Assembly (NCBI RefSeq): GCF_003570885.1
Contig: NZ_QXJC01000001.1
Coordinates: 496,001-560,000, forward strand
Direction of reading: 5' to 3'
DNA: 64,000 nt
DNA from: Simplicispira hankyongi
Lineage (GTDB): Bacteria; Pseudomonadota; Gammaproteobacteria; Burkholderiales; Burkholderiaceae_C
Made by a program: the position numbers and the translations under genes. This document shows, one piece after another, positions 23,269 through 42,557 of this stretch (its first letter is position 1; each line of letters begins with the position of its first letter). A model generated the notes under the pieces. It ran no database searches and had not been told where the DNA came from. It saw nothing but the letters and a program-made list of their open reading frames with translations.

Positions 23269-24450
23269 ATGTCCCCCACCCTCACACTGGCCGAACAACT
23301 GATTGCTCGCCCCTCCGTCACCCCCGACGACGCAGGCTGCCTGGCGCTGCTCACAGCGCGCTTGGCGCCGCTGGGCTTTGCCTGCGAAGCCATGGACAGC
23401 GGCCCGGAGAGCTTCCGGGTGCAGAATTTATGGTCAAAACGGCCTTCAGCGCATGATGGTAAAGGGCTTGCAGCTAGCAAAACGATAGTTTTTGCCGGCC
23501 ATACCGACGTTGTCCCCACAGGCCCCGTGGCGCAATGGGGCAGCGACCCCTTCGTGCCCATGCAGCGTGACGGCAAACTTTATGGGCGCGGCGCAAGCGA
23601 CATGAAAACGTCGATTGCGGCGTTTGTCGTCGCGGTGGAAGAGTTTTTGGCCGCCACGCCGGCGCCGCATCTCAGCATCGCCCTGCTGCTCACCAGCGAC
23701 GAGGAAGGCCCATCCGTGGACGGCACCAAGGTGGTGGTCGAGCAGCTGCGCGCACGCGGCGAGCGGATCGACTGGTGCATCGTCGGCGAGCCCACCTCGG
23801 TGGCGCGCACCGGCGACATGATCAAGAACGGCCGCCGCGGCACGCTCAGCGGCAAGCTGGTCGTGCGCGGCATTCAGGGCCACATTGCCTACCCACATCT
23901 GGCGCGCAACCCCATCCACCAGGCGGTTCCGGCGCTGGCCGAACTCGCCGCCATGCGCTGGGACGGTGGCAACGCCTTCTTCCCGCCCACCAGTTGGCAG
24001 ATGAGCAACATCCACGGCGGCACGGGCGCGAGCAACATCATTCCCGGCGAGGTGGTGGTCGATTTCAACTTCCGCTTCTGCACCGAATCAAGCGCCGAGA
24101 GCCTCAAGCAGCGCGTGCACGCCGTGCTCGACCGCCATGAACTCGAATACGAGCTGCAATGGACACTCGGCGGCCAGCCCTTCCTGACCACGCCCGGCGA
24201 ACTGGTGGACGCGGTGCAGCGGGCGATTGCCGACGAGACGGGCCTCGCCACCGAACTCTCCACCACCGGCGGCACCAGCGACGGGCGCTTCATCGCCACG
24301 CTGTGCCCGCAGGTGGTCGAGGTCGGGCCGCCGAACGCCAGCATCCACAAGATCGACGAGCACATTGCCCTCGCCGACGTCGAACCGCTCAAGAACATCT
24401 ACCGCCGCACGCTGGAGCACTTGAACACGCTGGCGGCTGCCCAGCCATGA
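23269..24450 (+). CDS. dapE: Succinyl-diaminopimelate desuccinylase DapE, with element-encoded insert
   Basis: Dinuclear zinc hydrolase releasing LL-diaminopimelate. The 393 residues contain the metal ligands and motifs FAGHTDVVP (His78), GRGASDMK (Asp111), TSDEEG (Glu145/146) and VGEPT (Glu174). The start is the ATG at 23269, eight bases after pilU. Compared with E. coli DapE recalled from memory, the stretch between the NLW (53-55) and FAGH is about nine residues longer, and this stretch is made by a palindromic element (core 23447-23476). The stop overlaps prmB. Confidence 0.94.
23431..23493 (+). repeat. Palindromic 30-base-core element inside dapE, copy 2
   Basis: Core at 23447-23476, flanked by tcaaaa on the left and an aaaacgatag stretch on the right. 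It is read in the sense direction of dapE and encodes residues 58-70, [13 protein letters not shown]. Confidence 0.75.
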
Positions 24451-25373
24451 ACGTGCCAACTCTGCCGCCACTGGCTGGCGCCACGCTGGGCGCGTTGGTC
24501 GATTCGGGCGCCGCCTTGCTGCAAGCAGCCGGCGTCTCCTTTGGCCACGGCACCACCAACGCCCACGACGAGGCCGCCTGGCTGGTGCTCTGGCGCTTGG
24601 GTCTGCCGCTCGATACGGCCTTGGGAGACGAACCGGATTCCAGGCAAAATAGGCCTGTAACGCAGGCGGAGCTTGCGCAGGTAGCTACACTTTTTGAAGA
24701 ACGCATCGCCAGCCGCAAGCCCGCCGCCTACCTGACGCAGGAAGCCTGGCTACAGGGCGTGCCGTTCTATGTGGACGAGCGCAGCATCGTTCCGCGCAGC
24801 CTGATCGCCGAGCTGATTGCCGACGGCAGCATCGATCCGTTCCTGAGCGACACCACCCACGCCGTGCTTGACCTGTGCACCGGCAATGGCAGCCTGGCCG
24901 TGCTCGCCGCCATGGCCTGGCCCGACATCGCCATCACTGGCGCCGACATTTCCGCCGACGCACTGGCCGTGGCCCGCATCAACGTGGACCGGCATGGCTT
25001 GGCCGATCGCATTGCACTGCTGCAGTCGGACGGCCTGGATGTGCTGCCTGGCCCCTGGGACCTGGTTGTTTGCAACCCGCCCTACGTGAATGCGCAAAGC
25101 ATGCAGGCGCTGCCCGCTGAGTACCGCGCCGAACCTGCACTGGCCCTGGCGGGCGGGGCCGATGGCATGGATTTCATTCGCCGCCTGCTGCACGAGCTGC
25201 CCGACAAACTTACCGAAGACGGCGTGTTGCTGCTGGAAATCGGCAACGAGCGCGCGCACTTCGAAGCCGCCTTTCCCCATCTGCCGGTGTACTGGCTGGA
25301 CACCAGCGCGGGCGCCGACCAGGTACTGCTCATCACCCAGGCCGCGCTGCGCGGCGGCGCAGGCCTGCGTTAG
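24447..25373 (+). CDS. prmB: Ribosomal protein uL3 glutamine methyltransferase PrmB
   Basis: SAM-dependent N5-glutamine methyltransferase of 308 residues. SAM motif [13 protein letters not shown] and the catalytic NPPY (VCNPPYV) are present. The segment [17 protein letters not shown] before the SAM domain matches PrmB rather than PrmC. The start ATG overlaps the dapE stop. A copy of the palindromic element appears to lie in the N-terminal domain (core 24658-24687, residues 69-81), without an obvious change in length against E. coli PrmB. Confidence 0.93.
24637..24696 (+). repeat. Probable palindromic element inside prmB, copy 3 (diverged)
   Basis: Core at 24658-24687, exactly 30 bases, with taacgc at the left and gcaggtagcta at the right; caaaat precedes it. 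More diverged than the other copies. It encodes [13 protein letters not shown] in the same frame as the dapE copy. Confidence 0.45.
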
Positions 25374-25527
25374 CGACCCCAGAGCCCTCCTGTCTCAGCC
25401 CAGCATCGCCCCCAGTGCCAAGCCCGTGCGCTGGCCAGGGCGGTGCGCCGTTTCCCACAGAGCGCCAACCTGCCCGTCCGGCCTTGCCGGACGCACGCGG
25501 GATAATCGCCCCAAGGTTTCCTATTTC

Positions 25528-40425: not shown

Positions 40426-40472
40426 GCGGCCGTTCTCCTTGTAACCGGTTGGCTGGTGGCGCGCGCCAGCAC

Positions 40473-42557
40473 TCAAGCGCCCTGCCCGAGCAGCGCCCGC
40501 AGGCCGGCTTCGTCCAGCACGGGCACGCCCAGCTCCTGCGCCTTGGCGAGCTTGCTGCCGGCCTCCTCGCCGGCCACCACGTAGCTGGTTTTTTTGCTGA
40601 CCGAGCCCGCCACCTTGGCGCCCGCGGCCTCCAGCAGGTCCTTGGCGGCCTCACGGCTGAGCGTGGGCAAGGTGCCGGTGAGCACCACCGTCATGCCCGC
40701 CAACGGCAGTTGCGTGCGCTCGGCCGGCGGGCCTTCGGGCCAGTGCACGCCACAGGCGCGCAGTTGTTCGATGACTTCGACGTTGTGCGGCTGGGCCAGA
40801 AAGGTGTGGATGGCCTCGGCCACCACCGGCCCGACATCCCGCACCTGCAGCAACTGCTCGGTACTGGCTTGCAAGATGGCGTCCAGGCTGCCGAAATGCC
40901 GCGCCAGATCCTTGGCCGTGGCCTCGCCCACCTGGCGGATGCCGAGCCCAAACAAGAAGCGCGGCAATGTCGTGCTCTTGGATTTTTCCAGCGCGGCCAG
41001 CAGGTTCTGCGCCGATTTCTCGCCCATGCGCTCCAGCGCTGTCAGGCCGACGAGGCCGATGCGGTACAGGTCGGGCAAGGTGCGCACCACGGCGCCATCG
41101 ACCAACTGGTCCACCAGCTTTTCGCCCAGGCCGTCGATGTCCATGGCGCGGCGGGCGGCAAAGTGCAGCAGCGCTTCCTTGCGCTGCGCCGGGCAGAACA
41201 GGCCACCGGTGCAGCGGTGGTTGGCCTCGCCGGGCTCGCGCACCACGGCGCTGCCGCAGATGGGGCATTGCCTGGGCATGCGAAAGTTGGCCACATAGCT
41301 TGGCCGCTTGCCCGGCACCACACCCACCACCTCGGGAATCACGTCGCCCGCGCGGCGCACGATGACCTCGTCGCCCACGCGCACGCCCTTCTTGCGAATC
41401 TCGAACAGGTTGTGCAACGTGGCGTTGGTGACGGTGACGCCGCCGACAAACACCGGCGCCAGCCGCGCCACCGGGGTCAGCTTGCCGGTGCGGCCGACCT
41501 GCACGTCGATCCCTTCGATGCGGGTGACCATCTCCTGTGCCGGAAACTTGTGCGCCACGGCCCAGCGCGGCTCGCGCGTCTTGAAGCCGAGCTGGCGCTG
41601 CAGGGCGAGCGAATCGACCTTGTAGACCACGCCGTCGATGTCGTAGGGGAGCTGGTCGCGCTCAGCGGCGATGCGCTCGTGGAACGCTACCAATTCGCTA
41701 GCGCCTAGCGCTTGTGTGGTCTGCGCTGCGACCGGAAAACCCCATTGTTTCAGTTGTTGGAGCAGGTCGAAGTGGGTGGCGAAATCCGGGCCGCCCTGCG
41801 CCACCGGCGTGACCTCACCCAAGCCATAGGCAAAAAACCGGAGCGGCCGCTGCGCCGCAATCGCCGGGTCAAGCTGGCGCACCGCGCCCGCGGCGGTGTT
41901 GCGCGGGTTGATGAAGGTTTTCTGGCCGCGCTCGCGCTGGGCCTCGTTCAGCCGCTCGAAGTCGGCGCGCGCCATGTAGACCTCGCCGCGCACTTCCAGA
42001 ATGGCTGGCACATCGCTCGGCAAGCGCAAAGGAATCTGGCGAATGGTGCGGATGTTGTGCGTCACGTCCTCGCCCACTTCGCCGTCGCCCCGGGTGGCGG
42101 CCTGCACCAACGCGCCGGCCTCGTAGCGCAGGTTCATGGCCAGGCCGTCGAACTTGAGCTCCGCCACGTAGGCGACAGGCGGCGCATCGGGCGCCAGACC
42201 GAGTTCCCGGCGTACGCGGGCGTCGAAGGCGAGTGCGCCAGCGGGCGACACGTCGGTTTCGGTGTGAATGGACAGCATGGGCACGGCGTGCCGCACCGGG
42301 GTCAGCTCAGGGCGCGGCGCGCCGCCCACGCGCTGGGTAGGCGACTCGGGCGTGACGCACTCAGGGAACTGCGCTTCCAGCGCCTGCAGCGCGCGAAAAG
42401 CGCGGTCGTACTCGGCGTCGGGCACCTCGGGCGCGTCTTGCACGTAGTACTGGTGCGCCCAGCGGTCCAACTGCCGGCGCAAAGCTCCTATCTTTATAGC
42501 TGCTTGCGCTTGCTCTGATTGCGCTGGAGCCGAAAAAAGGTCTAAATTTTTGGGCAT
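40473..42557 (-). CDS. ligA: NAD-dependent DNA ligase LigA, with element-encoded N-terminus
   Basis: Essential replication ligase of 694 residues. Adenylation Lys135 in LKFDG, nucleotide motifs ([19 protein letters not shown]), four-Cys zinc finger (CPICG...CTGGLFC), helix-hairpin-helix region and a C-terminal BRCT domain are all present. Relative to E. coli LigA (from memory), there are extra N-terminal residues before the [13 protein letters not shown] region; residues 4-23 are encoded by a palindromic element (core 42497-42526). A second, more diverged copy lies inside at core 41699-41728. Downstream of smc and zipA, as in related bacteria. Confidence 0.95.
41690..41740 (-). repeat. Probable palindromic element inside ligA, copy 9 (diverged)
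   Basis: Core 41699-41728 on the minus strand: cagcgcagac to aagcgctaggcgcta, exactly 30 bases, three differences from the consensus right half, with gttttccggtcg before it. Sense to ligA and in the common frame ([13 protein letters not shown]). The protein is not longer here than E. coli LigA, so it may be an ancient or replaced copy. Confidence 0.5.
42488..42548 (-). repeat. Palindromic 30-base-core element at the ligA N-terminus, copy 10
   Basis: Core 42497-42526 on the minus strand, with ttttttcggctc before and ataaagatag after. It begins within the fourth codon of ligA and encodes [13 protein letters not shown] (9-21). Confidence 0.8.

What the first reader, a model, noticed from the sequence alone, without database searches (positions are those of the whole stretch)
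23431..42548. Coding copies of the element all use one reading frame and give related 13-residue peptides
In dapE, pgeF, ligA (twice) and prmB the element is sense-oriented. It is read in the same frame in all five. The ungapped peptides are [13 protein letters not shown] (dapE), RPLAHRENALAAI (pgeF), [13 protein letters not shown] and [13 protein letters not shown] (ligA), [13 protein letters not shown] (prmB). These proteins are unrelated, so the shared peptide must come from the DNA element. It is comparable to the Rickettsia palindromic elements, which insert in-frame into protein genes. One frame avoids stop codons and gives a soluble helix, suggesting selection.
Basis: partly seen in the sequence, partly recalled or inferred. 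Interest (0 to 1): 0.85.

Follow-up and report, generated by a model that had tools for sequence, protein, structure and literature searches.

The report
Conserved 68-bp DNA motif in genes
A roughly 68-base DNA motif repeated some 500 times in this bacterium also lies inside protein genes, where codon choice rather than simple insertion seems to keep it, so it is probably a DNA site read by some unknown cell component and not a jumping piece of DNA.

Summary
The five peptides, their DNA and the common frame are real, and what they share is the DNA: at each of the five sites 0 of 20,000 synonymous recodings matched the element as well. But a sixth coding copy in the window is antisense (27217-27253).

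In-frame insertion fails where it can be tested: 47 of 50 (prmB) and 22 of 24 (second ligA site) orthologues without the element align without gaps. dapE, pgeF and the first ligA site are variable loops and cannot decide.

The element is a ~68-bp DNA motif with nearly fixed spacing and no stem covariation. Most alignable sites are shared between related species, its codons are somewhat more conserved than the rest of each gene, and it is enriched between convergent genes. It has decayed genome-wide in two clades of the genus (one: 88, 3, 0, 0, 0 strict copies). I read it as a binding site for an unidentified chromosome-wide factor. Its centre was listed in 2017 without a function.

The parts
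   Evidence: R1 31.6 bits, E 8e-9
   Evidence: R1 22.9 bits, E 4e-6
   Evidence: R1 16.6 bits, E 4e-4
   Evidence: R1 37.4 bits, E 1e-10
   Evidence: not listed by R1 at E <= 1
   Evidence: R1 26.9 bits
1859..1924 (+). intergenic copy
   Evidence: R1 52.4 bits
33773..33831 (-). intergenic copy, same place in G225, G265 and G264
37049..37113 (+). intergenic copy, same place in G264
53247..53309 (+). intergenic copy, absent at that place in G225
59755..59820 (+). intergenic copy, the best in the window, same place in G225 and G265
61007..61067 (-). intergenic copy, same place in G225 and G265
61509..61575 (+). intergenic copy, same place in G225 and G265
15904..15940 (+). probable degenerate intergenic copy: stronger copies at the same place in G225 and L001; fails the half-site filter here and is not listed by R1
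27628..27671 (+). probable degenerate copy just after the ABC-F gene; copies above threshold at this place in G225, G265 and L001
   Evidence: (E = 0.015)

Best explanation
The element is a ~68-bp double-stranded DNA recognition site: half-sites TAGCGCTTA and TAAGCGCTA, then AGCTAT, with AT-rich tracts on both sides. It occurs about 500 times along the chromosome and is read by a still unidentified trans-acting factor, most likely one concerned with chromosome topology or nucleoid organisation. Selection to keep sites at given places shapes whatever DNA lies there: spacers between genes and, inside genes, codon choice plus tolerant residues. The shared 13-residue peptide is a by-product. Two registers dominate, probably because they give common residues (Ala, Leu, Ile) at a bearable cost in stop codons. 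When the factor or the need for it is lost, the sites decay together by substitution. Shown here: the motif, near-fixed spacing, no stem covariation, gapless coding sites at prmB and ligA site 2, codon conservation, mostly shared sites between related species, two low-copy clades in one genus. Inferred: that a protein binds it, which one, its role in topology, and that the low-copy clades are losses.
For: DNA signal in genes beyond the peptide: 0 of 20,000 recodings at each of 5 sites. Gapless overlay at prmB (47 of 50) and ligA site 2 (22 of 24). In dapE the element's AT-rich flanks are the codons of NLW(A/S)K and KT-VF, residues also present in many lacking orthologues, written with TTA and ATA. 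Same-codon rate for the same residue, element versus rest of gene: ligA 0.761 vs 0.678, dapE 0.693 vs 0.636, prmB 0.728 vs 0.631, with GC3 0.35-0.42 against 0.82-0.84; in lacking lineages dapE 0.579 vs 0.684, prmB 0.587 vs 0.670. No pair of the stem covaries in 88 intergenic copies. Orientation-neutral in tandem gaps, 33 with and 28 against; 19 sense and 17 antisense genic copies. Density per kb: convergent 1.72, tandem 0.95, divergent 0.26, P = 1e-4. 11 of 12 alignable sites shared with G225, 9 of 10 with G265, 4 of 4 with G264, 4 of 4 with L001. Strict copies in 23 of 26 genomes of the genus; the three with none form one clade beside G257 (3) and G250 (88), and G254, G256, G258, G267 (6-11) form a second low-copy clade. 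Found in few plasmids (4 of 72,556 records) and in no phage record.
Against: No binding protein identified and no experiment. The codon-conservation excess is modest: the element ranks 92 of 672 and 104 of 671 (ligA), 68 of 368 (dapE) and 25 of 286 (prmB) among windows of equal length in the gene, and I chose the element-bearing sequences. Even spacing is weak: P = 0.0175 for 20-kb counts, 0.048 on contig C13, 0.16 on C1. Genes come from my own caller, which for example misplaced the ligA start. The matrix was iterated on hits that include genic ones. Of the low-copy genomes G256, G258 and G267 are 61-67% complete and G255 84%; the branch joining G250 to the copy-free clade has support 94/94, not starred. 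An insertion origin at dapE, pgeF and ligA site 1 is not excluded.
Confidence: 0.5

Rival explanations
1. A signal spread by biased DNA uptake and recombination (DUS/USS-like): fragments bearing the motif are preferentially taken up, so it accumulates by substitution in and between genes.
For: Hundreds of copies, genic copies without insertion, sites shared between species, loss of the whole set in some lineages; uptake sequences also sit in genes (passages of PMC2346458).
Against: About 68 bp instead of a short word; 36 of 124 copies in genes against 47-70% of uptake sequences in coding regions. ComEC (PF03772) is found in copy-free G251 and G253, so its loss does not explain theirs. Not decisive: the family was not found in copy-free G255 or low-copy G256 and G267, which are 84, 64 and 61% complete, and an uptake receptor was not searched for.
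Confidence: 0.17
2. A mobile palindromic element of the Rickettsia (RPE), MITE or REP kind that inserted in frame; now old and shared.
For: dapE, pgeF and ligA site 1 lie in loops of variable length; three Rhodoferax-type dapE genes (L025, L031, L059) carry the element with 8 extra residues; copy 53261 is missing in G225 with a shorter gap, 82 against 105 bp.
Against: Gapless at prmB and ligA site 2; few site differences between related species. The one Y1_Tnp gene found has no convincing copy beside it (a 34.6 hit nearby lacks the GCGC halves), and in the genus the family does not track copy number: present in copy-free G251, G253 and G255, not found in G141 with 76 copies.
Confidence: 0.14
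3. A relic: an old dispersed repeat without present function that decays at different speeds.
For: Graded copy numbers in the genus; degenerate copies such as ligA site 2 and 15904.
Against: Codons inside the element are more conserved than the rest of the gene in bearing lineages and less conserved in lacking ones; peptides at ligA site 1 change while the element's bases stay.
Confidence: 0.13
4. An RNA-level hairpin: terminator, mRNA stabiliser or processing site.
For: The core is an inverted repeat; in tandem gaps copies lie a median 29 bp after the upstream stop.
Against: No covariation in 88 copies, no orientation preference, antisense genic copies, no Rfam family in the window but a tRNA.
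Confidence: 0.06

Closest known systems
Motif pair GCTTAT(N)5AAGCG of Acidovorax ebreus TPSY (Tong, Schliekelman and Mrazek 2017, PMC5217627; abstract, passages and section 13 with Table 7 seen)
   Same: Same letters and spacing as the element's centre: 3 matches in the window, all in copies; mostly intergenic, 44 convergent against 4 divergent, 5 of 114 copies in genes.
   Different: The paper gives only the pentamer pair; the passages seen do not describe the 68-bp extent, coding copies, codon constraint, sharing or loss. Its Polaromonas pair ATAGCT(N)22CAAAAG was not found in my 174 loci.
Rickettsia palindromic elements (passages of PMC2229807)
   Same: Copies both between genes and in frame in protein genes.
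   Different: RPEs are 105-146 bp, form long stem-loops and are described as inserted; here ~68 bp, no stem covariation, no insertion at two of five sites.
DNA uptake sequences of Pasteurellaceae and Neisseriae (passages of PMC2346458)
   Same: Hundreds of copies, in genes with an orientation bias, maintained by substitution.
   Different: Uptake sequences are about 10-12 bases and mostly in coding DNA; here long and mostly intergenic.
REP/BIME repeats and strong gyrase sites (passages of PMC6379681; PMC3733652 listing only)
   Same: Palindrome-like, near gene ends; gyrase sites are enriched downstream of transcribed operons.
   Different: The gyrase motif is 130 bp with 10.75-bp phasing, whereas conservation here ends at about 34 bp from the centre; REPs are 20-40 bp by that listing; REP transposase genes do not track this element.
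Beta-proteobacterial repeat element BRE (PMC3110155, passages and section 14 seen)
   Same: Repeat found in Comamonadaceae, some copies within coding sequences.
   Different: 75-91 bp, 69% GC on average, partly in tandem in Bordetella; the window copies here are 41-57% GC.

Membership tests
Tong et al. 2017 motif GCTTAT(N)5AAGCG | the spaced word itself | tested here: met
   3 matches in the window, all inside copies; 0.01 expected
Tong et al. 2017 motif GCTTAT(N)5AAGCG | mostly intergenic, convergent favoured over divergent | tested here: met
   80 of 124 intergenic; 1.72 vs 0.26 per kb
Rickettsia palindromic element | inserted into genes, absent from orthologues as a gap | tested here: not met
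   prmB 47 of 50 and ligA site 2 22 of 24 lacking orthologues gapless; dapE, pgeF and ligA site 1 inconclusive
Rickettsia palindromic element | 105-146 bp with a long stem-loop | tested here: not met
   about 68 bp; no covariation
DNA uptake sequence | short word, largely in coding DNA | tested here: not met
   about 68 bp; 36 of 124 copies genic
DNA uptake sequence | raises DNA uptake | not testable with these tools
   ComEC present in copy-free G251 and G253 bears on it only indirectly
REP/RAYT system | linked to a REP-associated transposase | tested here: not met
Strong gyrase site | 130-bp motif with 10.75-bp phased GC | tested here: inconclusive
   conserved span about 68 bp; no periodicity test was made

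The most novel reading that the evidence does not exclude
A so far uncharacterised chromosome-wide DNA site system in Comamonadaceae-type bacteria: a trans-acting factor reads about 500 long sites, some of them written into housekeeping genes by codon choice and kept there across genera. When the factor is lost the whole set is erased, leaving natural element-free relatives in which the same genes encode nearly the same residues without the site.
Probability: 0.35. Interest if true: 0.82.

Novelty: new variant of a known kind. Interest (0 to 1): 0.6.

Why it matters
If right, some 500 long sites constrain codons and residues of ordinary enzymes for a DNA-level reason, which would mislead protein-evolution tests. 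It also makes a clean search possible: the factor should be present in copy-rich members and lost or changed in copy-free members of one genus (G250 against G257, G251, G253, G255). And it warns that repeats seen inside bacterial proteins need not be insertions.

Tried and rejected
RNA hairpin: no covariation. REP-transposase mobility. ComEC loss as the cause of motif loss in G251 and G253: ComEC present. BRE as the same repeat: different length, GC content and arrangement. Frame preference as a property of ordinary coding DNA: in 860 kb from 47 copy-free loci no frame stood out, but the upper-tail counts are small and may include runs of N. The Polaromonas pair of the 2017 paper: not in 174 loci. 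A genome-wide census with model R1 scored only 150 of 1,795 candidates, so the figure of about 530 copies is extrapolated from 864 kb. 15 of 139 hits above score 25 were dropped by a half-site filter; at least one of them, 15904, is probably a real degenerate copy, while 56575 and L109:5035 look like AT-rich false hits. Site by site comparison of intergenic copies with G251 and G253 gave nothing: the flanking gene pairs were not both found in the 80 kb fetched of each. Paper searches showed no further description of this element; the main text of PMC12306157 does not contain the five taxon names asked for. These searches cover an open-access library only. No structure was predicted.
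Full report
CHECK OF THE OBSERVATION. The five peptides are encoded exactly as written, all sense and all in one register. Eleven window copies in the scan, and ligA site 2, have 11 bases between AGCGC and GCGC. Model R1, built from 51 intergenic copies of this genome (three of the 51 lie in the window), finds 13 distinct sites in the window at E <= 1, among them one antisense in the ABC-F gene; it does not list ligA site 2. 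A matrix made only from 7 non-coding window copies scores the five coding copies 7 to 10 standard deviations above synonymous recodings of the same peptides, with 0 of 20,000 as high at any site. The DNA, not the peptide, is what is shared.

THE ELEMENT. The genome (3.71 Mb, 19 contigs) has 51 copies of a strict form and none of the reversed control. I fetched 40 stretches of 20 kb chosen by position and iterated a matrix over these and the window, 864 kb. Conservation runs from about -17 to +51 around the core. Above score 25 there are 139 hits; 124 pass a half-site filter: 80 intergenic, 36 genic, 8 partial, about 530 in the genome by extrapolation (ligA site 1 was put among the genic ones by hand because my gene caller misplaced the ligA start). 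The highest score in one third-order Markov sequence of equal length was 11.8. None of the pairs 8-28 to 15-21 of the apparent stem shows compensatory change in 88 intergenic copies. In tandem gaps 33 copies point with the genes and 28 against. Density is 1.72 per kb in convergent, 0.95 in tandem and 0.26 in divergent gaps (P = 1e-4). Each of the 40 stretches has 1 to 6 copies (before the filter); variance/mean 0.59, P = 0.0175. Of the 150 top copies, those on contig C13 are more even than random (P = 0.048), those on C1 not significantly (P = 0.16).

FRAMES. In genes of the sample: sense-1 14 of 19 sense copies, anti-0 11 of 17 antisense copies (P = 0.0004 and 0.008 against one third). In 80 named relatives plus the window: sense-1 67, anti-0 17, and sense-0, sense-2 and anti-1 one each; grouped by homologous gene, 17 clusters, of which 8 are sense-1, 6 anti-0 (one of these holds a single sense-1 copy too) and 3 others (clusters counted by me). 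Mean log2 residue usage is +0.18 for it, +0.09 for anti-0, -0.03 for sense-2; anti-2 has +0.32 but 2.6 stops per copy. That this trade-off explains the preference is inference.

INSERTION OR OVERLAY. Around dapE I compared 80 named loci and for ligA 30 loci of relatives. Orthologues without the element (score below 0) align gapless over the 13 codons plus two on each side in 47 of 50 cases at prmB and 22 of 24 at ligA site 2, but in only 4 of 49 at dapE and 1 of 10 at ligA site 1 (loci whose alignment did not cover the site were left out). All 4 lacking pgeF orthologues differ in length. The solved ligase 2owo aligns ungapped through ligA site 2. Example: prmB of L010 (uncultured Acidovorax) encodes AGRPVAPADQALVATLF with score -33, and L002 encodes SNRPVTPADQALAATLF with score 30. 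In dapE the AT-rich flanks of the element are the codons of NLW(A/S)K and KT-VF. So at two of five sites the element is overlaid on existing coding sequence; at the other three the loop length varies and the question stays open. In three Rhodoferax-type dapE genes (L025, L031, L059) the loop is 8 residues longer, which would also fit an insertion there.

CONSTRAINT AND LOSS. Among element-bearing orthologues, codons for the same residue are identical more often inside the element than outside (ligA 0.761 vs 0.678, 14 sequences; dapE 0.693 vs 0.636, 14; prmB 0.728 vs 0.631, 15), although third positions in the element are 35-42% GC against 82-84%. In lacking lineages the same stretch is less conserved than the rest (dapE 0.579 vs 0.684, 22 sequences; prmB 0.587 vs 0.670, 20) and as GC-rich. 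The excess is modest: the element windows rank 92 of 672, 104 of 671, 68 of 368 and 25 of 286 in their genes. Compared with G225, G265, G264 and L001, 11 of 12, 9 of 10, 4 of 4 and 4 of 4 alignable copies are at the same place (3, 5, 11 and 11 of the 15 window hits were not alignable; the G265 miss is ligA site 2, gapless and about at the threshold). The strict form AGCGC-N11-GCGC-NN-GCAGCTA occurs in 23 of 26 genomes of the genus; G251, G253 and G255 have none. On a LigA tree these three form one clade (100/100) beside G257 with 3 copies (100/99) and then G250 with 88 (94/94); G254, G256, G258 and G267 (6-11 copies) form a second clade (100/100). G256, G258 and G267 are only 61-67% complete. 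In the copy-free genomes ligA site 2 is gapless. In 80 kb each, G251 has 1 and G253 0 hits above 25, G225 17. In the wider family 37 of 250 genomes have a strict form, up to 243 copies, with one hit of the reversed control in all. Of the 80 named loci 33 have copies, among them Giesbergeria, Acidovorax, Simplicispira, Rhodoferax, Polaromonas and Comamonas; 47 have none, among them every Variovorax, Delftia and Hylemonella locus of the set.

MECHANISM. A DNA motif with near-fixed spacing, dyad-like, orientation-neutral, without RNA signature, kept at orthologous places and missing as a set in some lineages, fits a site for a trans-acting factor. Enrichment between convergent and depletion between divergent genes, slight evenness, and a CA/TG step at the centre (68 of 93 against 40 expected by shuffling) hint at DNA topology, but the conserved length does not match the 130-bp gyrase motif of PMC6379681 (passages). 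Uptake-signal behaviour is the main rival; ComEC is present in copy-free G251 and G253. Y1_Tnp genes do not track copy number. The element was found in 4 of 72,556 plasmid records and in none of 50,697 phage records, each searched with one copy as query.

KNOWN OR NEW. The centre was listed in 2017 as GCTTAT(N)5AAGCG in A. ebreus, 114 copies, function unknown (PMC5217627; match). The coding overlay, codon constraint, shared sites and set-wise losses were not met in the searches named under Tried and rejected.

Noticed in passing
window 42634-42676 and 59635-59677: A GC-rich inverted pair (43 nt, 86% complementary), a second repeat kind in the window; likeness to the beta-proteobacterial repeat BRE is a guess and was not tested.
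   Followed up: no
window 10145-10398: Tandem duplication of 127 nt, 83% identical.
   Followed up: no
window 34521-34604: 12-nt repeats coding a Pro-Gln-rich tail of the protein on the minus strand.
   Followed up: no
window 37251-39086: A 611-aa open frame on the minus strand in the stretch with the lowest GC of the window (55%), with a NACHT/AAA-like P-loop by eye; possibly acquired. Not searched against a library.
   Followed up: no
G250, G252, G255, G257: LigA matches are split near residues 119-186 of the query although no stop is reported inside the open frame; possibly extra segments in the gene.
   Followed up: no
G187:C12:9612-9648 and G226:C1:1278277-1278313: Copies that match the asymmetric pattern on both strands, so both ends carry GCAGCTA.
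   Followed up: no
window 62191-62288 and 63845-63942: A 98-nt direct repeat, 73% identical, 1,654 nt apart, the first copy inside an open frame.
   Followed up: no
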